Source of the DNA: Billgrantia tianxiuensis
Lineage (GTDB): Bacteria; Pseudomonadota; Gammaproteobacteria; Pseudomonadales; Halomonadaceae
Direction: 5' to 3'
Assembly: GCF_009834345.1 (NCBI RefSeq)
Contig: NZ_CP035042.1
Location: forward strand, 2,542,001 to 2,606,000
Length of the DNA stretch: 64,000 bases
Numbering within the stretch: the stretch's first letter is position 1; every line of letters starts with the position of its first letter. The notes below the pieces were generated by a model. The model ran no database searches, had not been told where the DNA came from, and was given only the letters and a program-made list of their open reading frames with translations. The translations under genes and the position numbers were made by a program. Shown in pieces: positions 10,685-18,952 of this stretch.

Positions 10685-11919
10685 ATGCACGAACGAGAGT
10701 TACACGAGCAAGATCTGCACGAAGAGGGCGGCAGCGACGCCACTATGCACCAGAGCGAGGAACGGAACCCGGCTCGCCATGTAGCAGGAGGCGATCCCAT
10801 TCCGTCGGCTGCGGTGATGGCCAACGCGAATAGCGCTGCTCGTATCGCGGCCAGCAGCGATGCCGAGGCCGTGGCCCTGTGGCTTGCCGAGTTCCGTGCC
10901 AGCCCACAAACTCTGCGGGCCTATCGCCGGGAAGCCGAGCGACTGTTGCTGTGGCTGGAGCATCAGGGCCGGGACCTGGGGCAATTGCGCCGCCAGGACC
11001 TGGATACCTTTGAAGCCTTCCTGGCTTCGCCCGCGCCGCGCCACCTCTGGGTGGGGCCGCCACGACCTCGACACGCACCGGATTGGCGGCCGTTTCGCGG
11101 ACCGCTGTCACCGGCCAGCCGCAGGCAGAGCCTGGTGATCCTGCAAGGCATGTTTGCCTGGCTGGTCGAGGCAGGGTGGGTTGCACACAACCCGTTCCGC
11201 TTGATGCGCGACAAGCGCCGCCGCCTCGACAATCGGCGCGCGGGTGTCGATCGCTACCTGGAGCGCCCGCTGTGGGAGTGGCTGTGGCAGTGGCTCACCC
11301 GCCCCCTGGAAGATGGCGCCAACGCTCGCGAGCGTTATCTATGGCAGCGTCGGCGCGTGATATTCGGCTTCGCTTACCTGCTGGCACCGCGTATCGGCGA
11401 GATGGCCGGCGCCGAGATGGGCGACTTCTTTCAGCGCGAAGGGCGCTGGTGGTGGCGCGTAGTGGGGAAGGGCGACAAGGCTGCCCGGATACCGGTGCCC
11501 GACGACATGCTGGTCCTGCTGCGCGAGTGGCGGCGTGAACTCGACTTATCCGCCGAGCCTGCGCCCGGGGAGGTAGGCCCCGTGCTGCGCGGCCTGGACG
11601 GCCAGCGTGGCCTGGGCGACAACCAGCTTTACCGCCTGATACGCGACACCTTTCGCCAGGCCGCCTCGGTCCTGGAAACCGAGGCCGGCGATACGGCGAC
11701 GGCACAGGTGGCGCGGCTGCGCAGCGCCACGCCTCACTGGCTACGCCATACCGCGCTCACGCATCAGGCCCAAGCCGGCGTGGAGCTGCGCTACCTGGCC
11801 AGCACCGCCCGCCATGCCGACTGGACACCACCGCACAATACCTCCATACCGAAGATGAGGAGTGGCATCGCCAACAGTCGGCCCATGGATTGCCCGGCAG
11901 GGCGGCCGAACCGGTATAA
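10685..11919 (+). CDS. tyrosine-family site-specific recombinase, one apparent frameshift
   Basis: The 411-residue corrected product has an N-terminal SAM-like core-binding domain (about 57-170) and a C-terminal catalytic domain containing every expected residue: Arg236 (LAPRIGEM), Lys262/265 (GKGDK), His351 and Arg354 (TPHWLRH), His377 and Tyr386 (ARHARLDTTAQYLH). The frame breaks at the CC near 11817; one extra C restores the last two catalytic positions and a stop at 11917-11919. Without that correction the frame runs into sufE and gives a false fusion. The start is uncertain: ATGs at 10685, 10745 and 10817 are possible and none has a good ribosome site. The first 15 residues are His/Glu-rich. 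It is not XerC or XerD, and no phage genes or att sites are nearby. Confidence 0.82.
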
Positions 11920-11920
11920 T
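11890..11920 (+). promoter_or_regulatory. candidate sufE promoter overlapping the recombinase stop codon
   Basis: A consensus TATAAT lies at 11915-11920, overlapping the corrected stop of the recombinase and 27 bases before the sufE start. The best -35, TTGCCC at 11890-11895, has a long 19-bp spacer, so strength is uncertain. Confidence 0.45.
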
Positions 11921-11947
11921 GGTGGACAAGCCAATACGGGAGACGAC

Positions 11948-12379
11948 ATGACTACCGAAGCCACGGCCGAACAGGCCCAGCAGGCGCTGCTGGAAGAGTT
12001 CGAGATGTTCGATAACTGGATGGATCGCTACCAGTACATCATCGACATGGGCAAGCAGCTGCCGGCGTTTCCGGAAGAGTGGAAGACCCCGGAGCGCAAG
12101 ATCCAAGGCTGCCAGTCGAACGTCTGGATACACCACTGTCGCGAAGGTGACGTACTGCACTTCGATGCGATATCGGATGCAGCCATCGTCTCCGGCCTGA
12201 TCGCGGTACTGATGCGCATCTACAACGATCGGCCTGCCACCGAGATTCGCGATACCAGCCCGCATTTCCTTGAGGACCTGGGGCTGGACAAGCACCTTTC
12301 GCCGACGCGCAGCAACGGGCTGCATGCCATGCTCGGCAAGATCTACGAGGTTGCCGAGAAAGAGGTCGCCTCGGCCTGA
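11948..12379 (+). CDS. sufE: cysteine desulfuration protein SufE
   Basis: SufE takes persulfide sulfur from a cysteine desulfurase (SufS or CsdA) and hands it on for Fe-S cluster assembly. The 143-residue length matches the family, and the acceptor cysteine is Cys55 in KIQGCQSNVW. ATG 11948 follows GGGAGA. There is no suf operon around it: it stands alone behind the recombinase, as the CsdE-like stand-alone copies often do. Together with nfuA 2.7 kb away it is the second Fe-S gene in this stretch. The 3' end overlaps the convergent RHH gene by 37 bases. Confidence 0.92.
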   Translation: MTTEATAEQAQQALLEEFEMFDNWMDRYQYIIDMGKQLPAFPEEWKTPERKIQGCQSNVWIHHCREGDVLHFDAISDAAIVSGLIAVLMRIYNDRPATEIRDTSPHFLEDLGLDKHLSPTRSNGLHAMLGKIYEVAEKEVASA

Positions 12380-13872: not shown

Positions 13873-14325
13873 TCAGCGCCCCTCCGCCGGATTGCGGTAG
13901 AGGATTTCCGGGTCGATCAACGGCTCGCTGGTGATGCGCGCCTCGCCGTTTTCAAGGGCTACGTAGAAACAGCTGCGCCGCCCGGTATGGCATGCGGGGC
14001 CGGTCTGTTCGACCTGCAACAGCAGCGTGTCGCCGTCACAATCGAGGCTGGCTCCGCGCAGATGCTGCTGCTGGCCCGAGGATTCTCCCTTGCGCCACAG
14101 CTTGCCGCGAGAGCGCGACCAGTAGCAGACACGCCCGGTGGCGAGGGTCTCTTCCAGCGCCTCACGGTTCATCCAGGCCATCATCAGCACTTCGCCGCTG
14201 TCATGCTGCTGGGCGATGGCGGGAATCAGGCCATCGCCGTTGAAACGCGCGGCCTCGAGCACCTCGGCTAGCGGCACACGGGAGTCGAGCTCGGCACGCT
14301 CGAGTTGCTTGAAGGTATCGGTCAT
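13873..14325 (-). CDS. hisI: phosphoribosyl-AMP cyclohydrolase
   Basis: Third step of histidine synthesis, opening the purine ring of PR-AMP. The 150-residue monofunctional enzyme shows [12 protein letters not shown] (46-57), [18 protein letters not shown] (67-84), and the metal-binding stretch [21 protein letters not shown] (95-115) with the Asp and Cys ligands. The HisE domain fused in E. coli is absent. It is separated from the rest of the his pathway, with zur 20 bases upstream and yidD 3 bases downstream, so these three may be cotranscribed. Confidence 0.94.
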
Positions 14326-14345
14326 GGCATATCCGTCGCGTAGTT

Positions 14346-14797
14346 TCAGGCACGCACCGCCGCATTCAGGCAGGCGTCACAACTGCCCAGCAGCTCGATG
14401 GTCTGACGCTCGACGCGAAAGCCCAAGGTGCGTGCCTGGGCGCTGAGTTGAGCGTTGACGTCATCCAGATGCAGCTCCTCGACACGCCCGCAGTGGCGGC
14501 AGATCAAGAGCTGGAAGCCATGTGCATGCTCGGGGCAGGGACAGGCGACATAGGCATTGAGCGACTCGATGCGATGCACCAGCCCTTGCTCGATGAGGAA
14601 ATCGAGCGCTCGATAAATCGTCGGCGGGCGGGCTGCCGCATGCTCGACGGCGAGCCGATCGAGCAGTTCATAGGCTTTCAGGCCCCCGCTGGCCCCGGCA
14701 ATCATCTCGAGCACACGGCGTCGGATCGGGGTGAAGCGAACCCGCGCTGCTGACATTGTCTCTCGGCCTGCGCAAGCAGGGCAGTGGCGTCGGTCAT
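14346..14797 (-). CDS. zur: Fur-family zinc uptake regulator Zur, one apparent frameshift
   Basis: A winged-helix metalloregulator of 150 residues (corrected). The DNA-binding half contains [15 protein letters not shown] and [20 protein letters not shown]. Structural zinc is held by two cysteine pairs, ICRHCG and GSCDACL. Starting at ATG 14756 drops the family N-terminus. Restoring one G at the run 14741-14743 joins it to [19 protein letters not shown] starting at ATG 14797, which matches the usual Zur N-terminus. Zur represses zinc import when zinc is sufficient. No znu genes lie here. It sits 33 bases downstream of the ATP-grasp gene on the same strand. Confidence 0.85.
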
Positions 14798-14830: not shown

Positions 14831-15826
14831 CTACGTGCTGACACAGGCCGGGGCCAGCTCGGGTTCAGGCAGGTCCTTGAGTTCACCACGACGGGAGAAA
14901 TGGCGCTGAGCAAAGGCGACCCTCTCCTTGACGTTCAGGCGATCGGACTGTTTCTCCACCAGATCGAGGCGCGAGCGCAGCCCCTCGCCGTTAGCCATTT
15001 GAATGGCAAGCCCCGGACGGGCGTTGAGTTCAAGCAGCATAGGGCCCCGGTCACGGTCGATCACCATGTCGGTGCCCAGGTAGCCAAGCCCGGTCATTTC
15101 GTAACAGCTCGCCGCCAGCTCGAGCAGATTCGTCCAGTCGGGAATGCGCAGGCTGGCGAGCTCGTGGCCGGTATCCGGATGGTCGCGCCGGGAACGATCG
15201 AACTGAACGCCACGCACCGCTGTTCCCGTGGCAATATCGAGCCCGACGCCCACCGCCCCCTGGTGCAGGTTGGCCTTGCCATCGGAGGCTGCCGTCGACA
15301 GACGCATCATGGCCATGACCGGGTAACCGCGGAAGACGATCACGCGAATGTCGGGTACACCTTCATAGGTGTACTCGGAGAGCTTCTCGTCGAAGTTGAT
15401 CAGCGCCTCGATCATCGCCACGTCGGGCGCGCCACCCAGGGAGTATAGCCCCGACAGGATGTTGGAGATATGGCGATGCAGATCCTCCAGGCTCAGCTTG
15501 GCACCGCTGGGTTTGACGAAGCCGTCATTGTCGACCCGCTCGATGACCAGGATGCCTTTGCCACCGCTGCCCTTGGCCGGCTTGATGGCAAAGCCGTTGT
15601 GCCCGGCGATCATGTTGCCCACCCGCTTGACCTCGAATTGGGTGGTCACGGTGCCGATCAGGGCAGGGGTGGTGATACCGTACTGCTCAGCCAGCAGCTT
15701 GGTCTTGAGCTTGTCGTCCACCAGCGGGTAGAGGCGTCGATTGTTATAACGCCCGATGTAACGAATGTTGCGCCGGTTCATGCCGATGATACCGCGACTC
15801 AGAAGCTGGCTCGGCCGTGCCCACAT
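14831..15826 (-). CDS. RimK-related ATP-grasp ligase (alpha-L-glutamate ligase-like)
   Basis: The 331-residue protein has the ATP-grasp nucleotide loop KPAKGSGGKG (82-91) and the metal-binding C-terminal strand LLELNARPGLAIQMAN. It matches the family annotated as alpha-L-glutamate ligase-related. Such enzymes form an amide bond between a carboxylate and an amine, but the acceptor and donor for this branch are unknown to me. It is the last gene of a three-gene leftward operon (retropepsin-like lipoprotein, inactive transglutaminase membrane protein, ligase), with only 4 bases between it and the preceding stop. Conserved co-occurrence of the three families is established, and in pseudomonads the set has been linked to osmoadaptation. 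Next to ectABC that role is plausible here too. Confidence 0.85.
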   Translation of the reverse strand: MWARPSQLLSRGIIGMNRRNIRYIGRYNNRRLYPLVDDKLKTKLLAEQYGITTPALIGTVTTQFEVKRVGNMIAGHNGFAIKPAKGSGGKGILVIERVDNDGFVKPSGAKLSLEDLHRHISNILSGLYSLGGAPDVAMIEALINFDEKLSEYTYEGVPDIRVIVFRGYPVMAMMRLSTAASDGKANLHQGAVGVGLDIATGTAVRGVQFDRSRRDHPDTGHELASLRIPDWTNLLELAASCYEMTGLGYLGTDMVIDRDRGPMLLELNARPGLAIQMANGEGLRSRLDLVEKQSDRLNVKERVAFAQRHFSRRGELKDLPEPELAPACVST

Positions 15827-15830
15827 GATG

Positions 15831-17336
15831 TCAATCCTCGGTGACCGGTTTGAAGCGCCTCAGCTCGAGCAGGCGGTATCCCGTGTAGTTACCCAGCAGC
15901 AGGATCAAAGCCATGATGATGAGCTGTACGCCCAAAAAGTTGAAGGTGATATGGCGTATCCACGGGTTGTTCATGGCGAGATAAGCCAGTACGGCAGTAA
16001 TGAGGCTTCCGCCGCCCTGAATCAAGACCTCCTTGGGACCTTCTTCTTCCCAGAGGATCGACATACGCTCGATGGTCCAGGCCAGAATGATCATCGGGAA
16101 GAAGGTGATCGTCAGGCCCGCATTGAGCCCCACCCGATAGGAGAGCACGGAGAAGATCGAGATGATGGCGATGACCGTGATGATCACCGCCGACACTCGC
16201 GCGACCAACAACAGGTTGAGATACGACAGGTAGTTACGTATTACCAGCCCCACCGAAACGATCAGCAGGAAGCCGATCAATCCAGTGGGCAGGGTCGTCT
16301 GGATGAAGGCCAGTGCGATCAACACGGGCATGAAGGTGCCCGAGGTCTTGATCCCGACGAGAATACGCAGGAACACTACCACCAGCGCCCCGATAGGAAT
16401 CAGCAGGATGGTCTGGAACAGCGCCTGCTCCTCCAGCGGCAAGCTGTGGATCGAGAAGTTGAGCAGGGTGTCGTCGACCAGCTGGCTGCGTACCGCGGCC
16501 GCGGCGGGCTGGCTGCGCGAAAGCATGGAGAAGGTGACCCGCGAGTTGGTGCCGCCCTGTACCTCGAGCACTGCGCGGCCCCCGGTTTCCCACAGCAGCA
16601 GGTTTTCCGGCTGGCCCTGGTCGGCAGTGCGCGGGTTGAACAGCGCCCAGTTCTCCTCGTCCGCAAAGACCATGATCCATGACGTCAAGGTCTGGCGCCG
16701 ACGCCCATCCTCGAGCACGAGCCCGCTCACTTCGCGCGCATGCACCCCGGCCTGGTTGAGCAGGCGCACCAGCAGGGGGGTGCGATCGAACTGGGTCAGC
16801 AGCAAGCGGGCGTTCTCGCCTTGACGCTCTGCGTCGAAATCGCGGATCAATTCCCGAGTGAAGGTATAGGGATCGGCACTGCGCGCCCAGGCACGTTCGA
16901 TCACCTGGGCCGCCGCTGTGTCGTAAGGACGCTCCCAACTGACTTCACGCAGTGCCGGACGAGCGATCTGACGCTGTCGCCGGTCATCGGTCACCTGCAT
17001 GCGCACGGAGTAATAAAGCTGCTGGCTGCCTGTTGCCCGTCGAATCGACCACTGCGCGCGACGACCGGTTTCGTCCTGCAGGAACGACAGCCCATAGCCC
17101 GGTGAGGCGGTATTCTCGGTCAGGATCCGGTAGCCGCGCTGATGCGAGGGCAATGCCAGCTCAACGCGCACAGGATCGCCCACGGCCGTGAAGTCGACGA
17201 TGGCCTCGACCTCCCATACCTGGCGCTGCTCACCGGGGGTCCACGGCACTTCCATTTGGATATGGCGATGCAGGCTTGTGCCGATGCCGAGCGCCATCAG
17301 CAGGCCCACGATGAGATAGAAGGGCAGTCGTGACAT
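15831..17336 (-). CDS. inactive transglutaminase-like domain fused to a multi-helix membrane domain
   Basis: The 501-residue protein begins with an N-terminal membrane anchor (about 4-22), followed by a periplasmic part with a transglutaminase-like fold (about 170-290) and a C-terminal block of about seven membrane helices (330-490). In active transglutaminases the second motif reads HAW; here it is TSWIMVF, and the nucleophile cysteine position in the helix before LLVRLLNQAG carries no Cys, so the triad is missing. This is the conserved state of the family, which therefore probably binds rather than cuts peptides. It lies between the retropepsin-like lipoprotein and the ATP-grasp ligase, suggesting a membrane scaffold linking cytoplasmic ligation to periplasmic sensing. 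Confidence 0.85.
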   Translation of the reverse strand: MSRLPFYLIVGLLMALGIGTSLHRHIQMEVPWTPGEQRQVWEVEAIVDFTAVGDPVRVELALPSHQRGYRILTENTASPGYGLSFLQDETGRRAQWSIRRATGSQQLYYSVRMQVTDDRRQRQIARPALREVSWERPYDTAAAQVIERAWARSADPYTFTRELIRDFDAERQGENARLLLTQFDRTPLLVRLLNQAGVHAREVSGLVLEDGRRRQTLTSWIMVFADEENWALFNPRTADQGQPENLLLWETGGRAVLEVQGGTNSRVTFSMLSRSQPAAAAVRSQLVDDTLLNFSIHSLPLEEQALFQTILLIPIGALVVVFLRILVGIKTSGTFMPVLIALAFIQTTLPTGLIGFLLIVSVGLVIRNYLSYLNLLLVARVSAVIITVIAIISIFSVLSYRVGLNAGLTITFFPMIILAWTIERMSILWEEEGPKEVLIQGGGSLITAVLAYLAMNNPWIRHITFNFLGVQLIIMALILLLGNYTGYRLLELRRFKPVTED

Positions 17337-17342
17337 TTCTCT

Positions 17343-17383
17343 TCCTTGCAGATAGGTCCTTTAGAGAGGTCCTTGCAGATAGG
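17343..17383. repeat. 14-bp direct repeat (27-bp period) upstream of the membrane gene
   Basis: TCCTTGCAGATAGG occurs at 17343-17356 and again at 17370-17383, inside the 63-bp gap between the lipoprotein stop and the start of the transglutaminase-like gene. On the coding strand it lies immediately upstream of the start codon. Confidence 0.6.
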
Positions 17384-17399
17384 GCGATCAGGCTCGGTA

Positions 17400-18254
17400 T
17401 CAGCCTTCTTCTTCATCCCTGTCGTTGACTTCGTCCTGCGGCGCCTCGGAGGCCGGACGTCCCCCTGGGAACTCTGGGCGTGGATGAATGTAGTTTTCCG
17501 CCACGTCGATCAAGGCGATGTCCATCAAGAAGCGACGTCCCAGCAGCACCGGATAGTTGAGATGAGTACGGTCGCTCAGGGTGAATTCTACTGTTTCACG
17601 AATGGGCCCAAGGGTCATCAATAGACTGACCACCGGACGCGATTCGCTGCCTGCGGCCTGCAGGATGCGGACCCGGCGCTCGACCGGGCGCTCGATCCAT
17701 TCATCCCGGATATGCTCGACGAAGACATCATCGTCGGTAAGGCCCAGCTTGAAGCGTACCCAGTCCTCGCCATCGCGCTCGAAGCGCGTGATGTCCGTGG
17801 CCGACAGGGCAGAAGTGTTGGCCCCCGAATCCACCCGCGCGCGAAGATAAGTGCCGACATCAGGCAGCCCGATCCATTCAGCGCGACCGACCATTTCCTT
17901 GGCCGCAAGCGTTTCGCTGAGCTCAGTGTTGCACTCTGCGGGTACCAGCACCGGCTCGTCGCCACGACGCTGCTCCAGCCGCTCGATATCGCCACGCAGA
18001 TGACGCAGCGTGACACCAGCGTCGCGCAACTCGGCGAGCAGCTCGGCCTGGTGACGGCCGTTGGCAGCGAGGGCGTCGGAGCGATCGCAGCTCTGGACGA
18101 TCCGCTCCTCGAGCTGGCCGATGCGAGTCTCGAAGGCATCGGGACTCAATGTGGGTTCGGGCTCGGAATGAGAACCGGGCGTGAGGGCGCATCCGCTGAT
18201 CAACAATGAACTCAGCAACCAGGGTATGGGTGCGGATAGCGTTCTCGGTCGCAT
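17400..18254 (-). CDS. retropepsin-like (DUF785/RimK-LysX) lipoprotein
   Basis: The 284-residue protein has a lipoprotein signal with lipobox LISGC (Cys22). A coiled-coil stretch (about 40-98) follows, then a retropepsin-like domain with the catalytic-type motif ARVDSGANTSAL (Asp142-Ser-Gly). It is often annotated as an ATP-dependent zinc protease on weak grounds; the fold is that of a single-lobe aspartic protease that dimerises. First gene of the operon with the inactive transglutaminase/membrane protein and ATP-grasp ligase. The acidic tail ends DEEEG. No frame break. Its promoter should lie in 18255-18500, where a 6-bp dyad is visible. Confidence 0.85.
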   Translation of the reverse strand: MRPRTLSAPIPWLLSSLLISGCALTPGSHSEPEPTLSPDAFETRIGQLEERIVQSCDRSDALAANGRHQAELLAELRDAGVTLRHLRGDIERLEQRRGDEPVLVPAECNTELSETLAAKEMVGRAEWIGLPDVGTYLRARVDSGANTSALSATDITRFERDGEDWVRFKLGLTDDDVFVEHIRDEWIERPVERRVRILQAAGSESRPVVSLLMTLGPIRETVEFTLSDRTHLNYPVLLGRRFLMDIALIDVAENYIHPRPEFPGGRPASEAPQDEVNDRDEEEG

Positions 18255-18556
18255 GTGGGTCGACAGCCTCCGGTCGGGCTACGGGCTAGGCGCAGCGGCA
18301 GTGGGCTTGCTTGATGGGCTCGGGTTTCGTTGCTCGAAACATGACGGAGGATGATAAGGATTTCGAGGTGGCGTTGTCCAACGTCGCGACAGACATCCAA
18401 TTTAACATAATATACATTATGCGAACTTTGATCCCAGCGAGGTTCTCCTGACATGCGCCGGGCTGACACGCCCGTGCAGGCACATGCACCACGTCCATAC
18501 GAAGAACCCCGGCCAGTGCCAGGGTTCTCCATATCACCGCGAACCACCGAGGCCCG
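18255..18556. promoter_or_regulatory. 302-bp gap between ectC and the retropepsin operon
   Basis: Contains the ectABC terminator (18503-18528) and an AT-rich patch at about 18400-18425 with a perfect dyad, CATAAT (18406-18411) and ATTATG (18416-18421). On the minus strand that patch supplies CATAAT/TATTAT-type -10 boxes about 150 bases upstream of the lipoprotein gene, but no convincing -35. Open frames across the gap lack a ribosome site and homology, so I call no gene. Confidence 0.45.
18503..18528 (-). terminator. terminator of the ectABC operon
   Basis: An 11-bp stem (18503-18513 with 18518-18528, one G-U pair) and 4-base loop lies 29 bases after the ectC stop. The following T-tract is weak. 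Confidence 0.6.
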
Positions 18557-18952
18557 TCAAATCTCGTCGGGCGGCGCGTAGGAACCATCCTCGCGGTGCA
18601 CTTCCTTGCCGGTGATCGGCGGCGTGAACACGCAAGCCAGGTGCATGGTCTTGTGAGCCCGCAGCAGATGCTCGTCGTGCTGGTCGAGTATGTAGATATC
18701 GCCGGGCTTGATCGGCCATATCTTGCCGTCGGCCAGAGTTTCCACTTCACCTTCACCTTCGATGCAGTACACCGACTCGTAGTGATGCTTGTAGTGGATA
18801 TGCGTCTCGGTGCCTTCGTAGATCCGCGTGATGTGGAACGAGAAGCCGCCGCCGTCATTGGCGAGCACCAGGCGCGTACTGTCCCAGGTTCCGCTTTCCG
18901 ACTTCACCAGCCGGTCCGTCTTGCGCGCTTCCTCGAGATTGCGAACGATCAT
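18557..18952 (-). CDS. ectC: L-ectoine synthase
   Basis: Cyclises N-gamma-acetyl-L-2,4-diaminobutyrate to ectoine, the last step of compatible-solute synthesis. The 131-residue cupin is full length and contains the iron-binding positions Glu59 (HHYES), Tyr87 and His95 ([11 protein letters not shown]), offset by two from the numbering of the Paenibacillus enzyme. The frame is open 171 bases further upstream, but ATG 18952 gives the family start MIVRNLEEA. It is last in the operon, 83 bases after ectB, and followed by a hairpin. No ectD hydroxylase, ectR or lysC-type aspartokinase follows. Confidence 0.97.

What the first reader, a model, noticed from the sequence alone, without database searches (positions are those of the whole stretch)
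14831..18254. Retropepsin lipoprotein / inactive transglutaminase membrane protein / ATP-grasp ligase operon beside ectABC
Three genes with 4- and 63-bp gaps encode a periplasmic lipid-anchored aspartic-protease-like protein, a membrane protein with a transglutaminase fold lacking Cys and His of the triad, and a RimK-related ATP-grasp ligase. The trio suggests a transmembrane circuit in which a cytoplasmic ligase makes a peptide-like product sensed or cut in the periplasm. The product is unknown. Comparative genomics has flagged the combination and pseudomonad work links it to osmoadaptation. Here it follows the ectoine operon directly on the same strand.
Basis: partly seen in the sequence, partly recalled or inferred. 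Interest (0 to 1): 0.75.

Follow-up and report, generated by a model that had tools for sequence, protein, structure and literature searches.

The report
rlo envelope-stress operon beside dif
Three genes beside the ectoine genes of a salt-loving bacterium are the known rlo envelope-stress operon, and the two gene sets are kept apart by the dif site where chromosome dimers are resolved, so their neighbourhood marks a chromosome landmark rather than one shared operon.

Summary
Window 18254-14831 (- strand) encodes a retropepsin lipoprotein, a dead-transglutaminase/7TM protein and a RimK-related ATP-grasp ligase, with gaps of 63 and 4 bp. They match rloABC of Pseudomonas aeruginosa (PMC12239564). 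There, loss of the RloA proteases is harmful in low osmolarity, losing rloB or rloC cures it, and RloA cuts polyglutamate. So the trio is known, and the phenotype is hypo-osmotic, not high salt.

New is the setting. ectC and rloA are separated by a dif site (window 18427-18400; no mismatch to a published dif), single in the genome. dif lies between them in 75 of 75 named halomonad loci holding both. ectC is within 15 kb of dif in 31 of 33 genomes lacking rlo. Outside the family neither operon is generally near dif. The adjacency reads as a terminus landmark, not an ectoine-rlo circuit.

Also new: in 10 loci with an intact transglutaminase triad (one clade) no rloA lies in the held flanks, against 45 of 49 with a broken or missing triad. 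The polyglutamate product is unproven.

The parts
17400..18254 (-). rloA: lipid-anchored retropepsin (lipobox LISGC by eye, Cys 22; linker; PF05618 domain with DSGA active site at D142)
15831..17336 (-). rloB: one N-terminal TM helix, periplasmic transglutaminase-fold domain without Cys/His/Asp triad, 7TM domain
14831..15826 (-). rloC: RimK-related ATP-grasp ligase (TIGR02291, PF14397)
18400..18427 (-). dif, XerC/XerD chromosome dimer resolution site, AGTTCGCATAATGTATATTATGTTAAAT; one match in the genome
18351..18380 (-). promoter-like site TGGACA-18-TATCAT for rlo, both hexamers kept in the window and the ten relatives aligned
   Evidence: consensus match; 2 promoter-like sites found against 1.8 in shuffles of the region, so the conservation is the argument
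18557..18952 (-). ectC, neighbour on the other side of dif, not part of the rlo unit

Best explanation
The trio is the rloABC envelope-stress operon. Most likely mechanism: RloC, on the cytoplasmic face of RloB, joins glutamates (inferred from its RimK relationship) into an acidic, polyglutamate-like chain or tag. The RloB membrane domain passes or presents it to the periplasm (inferred). RloA, held to the outer membrane by its lipid (inferred), cuts it back so that it does not build up; in P. aeruginosa loss of the proteases is harmful in low salt, and removal of rloB or rloC cures this (shown there, not here). The inactive transglutaminase fold of RloB probably binds the chain or RloA after having lost its own cutting function (inferred). 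The operon is not part of the ectoine unit: it starts just beyond dif, with its own promoter-like site, and sits next to ectABC in halomonads because both flank the chromosome's dif site.
For: Families and order. The trio is kept in other gammaproteobacterial families: all three genes in 27 of the 29 best class loci outside the own genome (L050 shows no RloA in its short flank, L061 is cut off before RloC). RloA acts on polyE, and the epistasis with rloB/rloC is published (PMC12239564). The window RloA keeps the catalytic D142 and the arginines R206 and R229, which by spacing fit R114/R137, needed in P. aeruginosa (residue match inferred). RloB-RloC are one polypeptide in L076, and the modelled helices of RloB would put its C terminus in the cytoplasm (topology inferred). 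Own genome: one more RloA-like protein with a signal peptide by eye (L208) and one without (RimB-like) next to a RimK-like frame (L209). dif: 28 of 28 identical to a published dif, one match per genome in 109 of 121, FtsK-orienting KOPS pointing at it 15 of 16 in the window and 440 against 12 in named loci, between ect and rlo in 68 of the 69 linked genomes.
Against: No product has been seen in any organism. RloC could tag a protein or another molecule, and its substrate is inferred from RimK, to which P. aeruginosa RloC is 24% identical (PMC12239564). The 7TM domain has no convincing relative in the PDB, so 'export' is a guess. In Shewanella, disrupting a gene for an inactive transglutaminase with seven helices raised vesicle production (PMC12096838), which an exporter does not obviously predict. 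A position shared at dif does not exclude a selective reason for keeping both osmotic loci there. 12 of 121 family genomes gave no dif match, and in the genus of G004, G044, G056 and G078 dif is near neither ect nor rlo.
Confidence: 0.6

Rival explanations
1. RloC adds glutamates to an envelope protein or peptidoglycan-linked molecule presented by RloB, and RloA trims this tag: a reversible modification rather than a free polymer.
For: RimK/RimB do this to RpsF in the cytoplasm; RloA also cuts polyE placed on proteins (PMC12239564); cell-shape and cell-wall drug phenotypes fit a modified envelope enzyme.
Against: The authors found no encoded periplasmic polyE target, and a cytoplasmic tag would have to cross the membrane with its carrier. 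Not tested here.
Confidence: 0.3
2. The trio and ectABC form one functional osmotic module, kept together by selection.
For: Linked within 15 kb in 69 of 83 family genomes; ectC upstream of rloA in 75 of 80 named loci.
Against: dif lies between them in 68 of 69 linked genomes, the other having no dif match; ect stays at dif without rlo in 31 of 33; other genes (2-oxoacid dehydrogenase set, membrane-fusion protein, MFS transporter, kinase) sit between them in some of the six loci looked at; of 8 genomes outside the family with both, none has them on one contig (mostly drafts); rlo has its own promoter-like site.
Confidence: 0.08
3. The rlo-dif-ect order is kept for a reason tied to the terminus, such as timing of expression with division or protection of the dif surroundings.
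For: ect and rlo linked in at least one genome of 14 of the 16 family genera with rlo; a tyrosine recombinase homologue also lies 5.4-11.8 kb from dif in the 52 loci measured.
Against: Shared descent alone explains a conserved neighbourhood; insertions of several kb on either side of dif are tolerated.
Confidence: 0.15

Closest known systems
rloABC of Pseudomonas aeruginosa (Lormand et al., mBio 2025, PMC12239564; abstract, passages and two sections seen)
   Same: Same three families in the same order, secreted protease, inactive transglutaminase with 7TM, ATP-grasp
   Different: Location at dif beside ectABC; lipid anchor and N-terminal linker on the window RloA (not compared with P. aeruginosa RloA here); NCBIfam RloA/RloB models are matched only below their cut-offs; no function tested
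RimK/RimB (ribosomal protein S6 glutamylation)
   Same: ATP-grasp glutamate ligase family paired with a retropepsin of the PF05618 family; a RimB-like frame beside a RimK-like frame exists elsewhere in this genome (L209)
   Different: Cytoplasmic, no membrane partner; rloC is over the cut-off of TIGR02291 and under that of the RimK subfamily model
PgsB-PgsC-PgsA (poly-gamma-glutamate synthase)
   Same: Works-like idea only: cytoplasmic ligase plus membrane protein making a polyglutamate, with a degrading enzyme outside
   Different: Ligase is of another family; homology of the RloB 7TM domain to PgsC/CapC is not supported by profile comparison
dif/XerCD site of Proteobacteria (PMC2731167, passages seen)
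   Same: 28 of 28 positions equal to the dif listed there for Neisseria meningitidis MC58, 26 of 28 to E. coli dif
   Different: Nothing in the site; the halomonad placement between ectC and rloA is what is added here. The H. [quoted passage not shown]

Membership tests
RloABC system | Secreted retropepsin (PF05618) with D-[ST]-G-A active site | tested here: met
   (1.3e-37); DSGA at D142; lipobox by eye and by a loose pattern in relatives; no signal-peptide program was run
RloABC system | Transglutaminase fold without catalytic triad fused to 7TM | tested here: met
RloABC system | ATP-grasp gene RloC next to them, same order | tested here: met
RloABC system | NCBIfam RloA/RloB models over their cut-offs | tested here: not met
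   RloB 341 of 900 bits; RloA1-3 models 84-121 of 210-280 bits. The cut-offs look set for close orthologues of the Pseudomonas proteins (my reading), so this bears on naming, not on architecture
RloABC system | Polyglutamate cleavage and low-salt phenotype | not testable with these tools
   Known for P. aeruginosa only (PMC12239564)
Poly-gamma-glutamate synthase PgsBC / CapC | Membrane subunit homologous to PF14102 | tested here: inconclusive
   No Pfam PF14102 match; hhalign E 0.1-0.5, scores inside the block-shuffled null and in one version under reversed controls; helix order of the two models looks alike by eye, which is not a test
Poly-gamma-glutamate synthase PgsBC / CapC | PgsB-type ligase in the operon | tested here: not met
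   The ligase is ATP-grasp
dif site | 28-bp XerC/XerD motif, once per chromosome | tested here: met
dif site | KOPS oriented towards it and GC-skew change | tested here: met
   15 of 16 KOPS; skew +0.009 over the 18 kb to the left, -0.030 to the right, a weak change whose maximum is 2.6 kb away
dif site | Xer recombination at the site | not testable with these tools
   Needs an experiment
Extended ectoine operon | Cotranscription with ectABC | tested here: inconclusive
   dif and an own promoter-like site lie between; no transcript data

The most novel reading that the evidence does not exclude
RloB-RloC is an alpha-linked counterpart of the Bacillus PgsBC machine: a membrane synthase/exporter of a periplasmic polyglutamate that works as an osmotic polyanion. 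Its depolymerising step was once done by the transglutaminase domain of RloB itself and was taken over by the retropepsin RloA. In halomonads this periplasmic osmotic system and the cytoplasmic one (ectoine) are both anchored at dif.
Probability: 0.2. Interest if true: 0.8.

Novelty: new member of a known kind. Interest (0 to 1): 0.5.

Why it matters
It corrects a tempting inference: a conserved neighbour of ectABC looks like part of osmoadaptation, yet the order is explained by both sets flanking dif. It gives a precise, testable dif for ectoine-producing halomonads. It also adds two clues to an unsolved system: RloB and RloC can be one protein, and an intact transglutaminase and a neighbouring RloA exclude each other in this sample (one evolutionary switch), which suggests that RloA replaced the periplasmic cutting step.

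Tried and rejected
CapC/PgsC relation of the RloB 7TM domain: the eye sees similar motifs and helix order, but hhalign gave E 0.2 (three tandem CapC proteins), 0.13 and 0.11 (classical PgsC), 0.098 (combined) and 0.29 (tandem CapC family). Scores of 16.5, 16.5 and 13.5 lie under the 95% points of 200 block-shuffled profiles each (18.9, 17.7, 16.6). With alignments A4/A5 it gave E 0.54, a lower score than both reversed controls, with or without secondary structure. Left as a weak lead.

An operator for an osmotic regulator in the ectC-rloA gap was my first reading of the conserved palindrome; it was dropped when the sequence proved to be dif.

Dropped before counts: G197's PF14402 match (20 bits, below the cut-off); a large frame at that place is a sodium:solute symporter. 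13 weaker second or third ectC matches were left out. In one search: the two ectC matches under the cut-off (G186, G318), second copies in G269 and G000 itself. The 59 loci are not a random sample: the 29 best of the class search, 8 weak ones of it (G282 and the own genome added), and 20 that I picked as most divergent (17 of the 65 matches, 3); the close relatives were left out.

Paper searches that listed no report of dif between ectC and rlo: (10 of 104 papers listed; 10 of 57 listed), with passages of PMC3187862, PMC2731167, PMC3025954 and PMC5638851. One search (rlo-like annotations with Halomonas and ectABC) found no paper. For the product. Iyer et al. 2009 was not held, so what it says of this gene set is recalled.
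Full report

WHAT IT IS. This is the rlo operon, named in P. aeruginosa (PMC12239564: abstract, passages, the discussion and the polyglutamate section seen). There, a mutant of all three RloA proteases cannot grow under hypo-osmotic conditions, and deleting rloB or rloC cures it. Purified RloA cuts 8 or 10 consecutive glutamates, not 6 or fewer. The window protein keeps the catalytic aspartate (D142) and two arginines, R206 and R229, whose spacing of 23 equals that of R114 and R137, which are needed in P. aeruginosa (the residue match is my inference). The same genome holds a second RloA-like protein with a signal peptide by eye (L208) and one without, RimB-like, next to a RimK-like frame (L209). 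The trio is therefore known. In Shewanella vesiculosa, disruption of a gene for an inactive transglutaminase with seven helices raised vesicle output (PMC12096838, passages).

THE NEIGHBOUR ectABC. In the window's family the 7TM gene is present in 83 of 121 genomes and ectC in 119 of 121. In 69 of the 83 the two are within 15 kb on one strand, ectC first. Of 80 named loci (the best of 504 confirmed relatives), 75 hold ectC upstream of rloA and 70 hold all six genes in order. Aligning the ectC-rloA gap of the window and ten relatives showed one block far more conserved than the rest. It is AGTTCGCATAATGTATATTATGTTAAAT at 18427-18400, equal in 28 of 28 positions to a dif site listed in PMC2731167 and in 26 of 28 to E. 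coli dif. Its 16-bp core occurs at one place in the 5,015,118-base genome with up to 2 mismatches. The 24-bp pattern with up to 3 mismatches occurs exactly once in each of 109 of 121 family genomes, and the backward control never. The FtsK signal GGGNAGGG (KOPS; PMC6199493, passages) points to the site in 15 of 16 cases in the window and in 440 cases against 12 in the named loci with dif (the loci are related, so these are not independent). The GC skew changes from +0.009 to -0.030 across it, a weak change with its maximum 2.6 kb away.

CONSEQUENCE. dif lies between ectC and rloA in 75 of 75 named loci that hold both; of the other five, two have dif upstream of rloA with no ectC found and three have no dif within 5 mismatches. 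In the whole-genome sample, 107 genomes have dif and ectC: 100 on one contig, 99 within 15 kb, 60 within 1 kb. 74 have dif and rlo: 69 within 15 kb. Of the 69 genomes with ect and rlo linked, 68 have dif and in all 68 it is between them; G022 has no dif match. ectC is near dif also in 31 of 33 genomes without rlo. Exceptions: G037 has ectC 153 kb from dif; in the genus of G004, G044, G056 and G078 dif is near neither; nine genomes with ect and rlo had no dif match. Against a general rule: outside the family dif and rlo are within 15 kb in 1 of 33 genomes, dif and ect in 0 of 21, and ect and rlo are on one contig in 0 of 8. Most of these genomes are drafts, and only 6 of the 33 and 5 of the 21 pairs are on one contig, so absence there is weak evidence. 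The gap can hold other genes; in six loci looked at, these include a 2-oxoacid dehydrogenase set, a membrane-fusion protein with a 1020-aa neighbour that was not scanned, an AraC regulator with a glycosylase and an MFS transporter, a DUF3833 gene, and a kinase. rlo has a conserved promoter-like site after dif. The H. [quoted passage not shown]); the site itself, its place between ectC and rloA and its spread over the family were not seen in the papers listed, of which only the first ten each were shown.

MECHANISM CLUES. I examined 59 loci of the 7TM family in their held flanks; they were chosen for diversity, not at random. In 10 the Cys-His-Asp triad is intact; none has an RloA-like gene in the held flank, and all 10 have RloC, in L076 fused to RloB in one protein of 838 aa. 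In the other 49 the triad is broken or the domain is missing, and 45 have RloA; the four without are L050, L074, L184 and L195. The flanks differ (1.5 kb for 29 loci, mostly 2-4 kb for the others). The 10 form one branch of the tree (support 100/99, one change), so this is one evolutionary switch, not ten. Of the 10 genomes, 6 have no PF05618 gene at all; G301, G221 and G407 have one elsewhere, and G153 has two, one of them beside its second, broken-triad locus. I infer that the periplasmic cutting step moved from the transglutaminase domain to RloA. The fusion places RloC at the C-terminal, by inference cytoplasmic, end of RloB. Together with the published epistasis this supports a product made by RloB/RloC and removed by RloA; polyglutamate is the best candidate, not shown.

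WHAT IS NOT SHOWN. The product, transport by RloB, and any effect of rlo in halomonads. A relation of the RloB membrane domain to the PgsC/CapC family would have fitted well, but the statistics do not support it.

VERDICT. A new member of a known kind in a noteworthy place.

Noticed in passing
window 10685-12379 (+): A tyrosine-recombinase gene (weak XerC match, below cut-off) runs into SufE in one frame here, while three relatives read have a 415-436 aa protein with the terminal catalytic box. A homologue is found in 73 of 80 named loci, on the rlo side 5.4-11.8 kb from dif in the 52 where that was measured.
   Followed up: partly
L209 3740-4720 (genome 3.37 Mb): The rimK-like gene beside the RimB-like gene is split over two frames in this assembly; with the recombinase and a completeness of 95.21 this may be assembly error.
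   Followed up: no
L067-L072, L082-L084, L087-L091: Proteins of about 1080 aa with two tandem CapC domains and a long extra part, downstream of a CHASE2 protein in L082 and of a gene resembling a histidine kinase by eye in L069; function unknown.
   Followed up: partly
L076-L080, L178-L182: A sister group of RloB with an intact transglutaminase triad and RloC next or fused; TPR proteins stand beside it in the four loci scanned (L076, L077, L078, L080).
   Followed up: partly
L076 (G301 contig C24): The fused RloB-RloC gene lies 3.7 kb from a dif-like site (2 mismatches), the only case within 15 kb in the sample outside the window's family.
   Followed up: no
L155, L158, L165; G074, G084, G115, G109: dif is turned round relative to the flanking ect genes in these; where rlo is present, dif is still between ect and rlo.
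   Followed up: no
window 13873-14756: A Zur-like regulator and hisI follow rloC on the same strand; the zur frame starts 74 bp after rloC.
   Followed up: no
L208 2941-3597: A second RloA-like protein in the same genome, with a signal peptide by eye and a very acidic C-terminal tail.
   Followed up: partly
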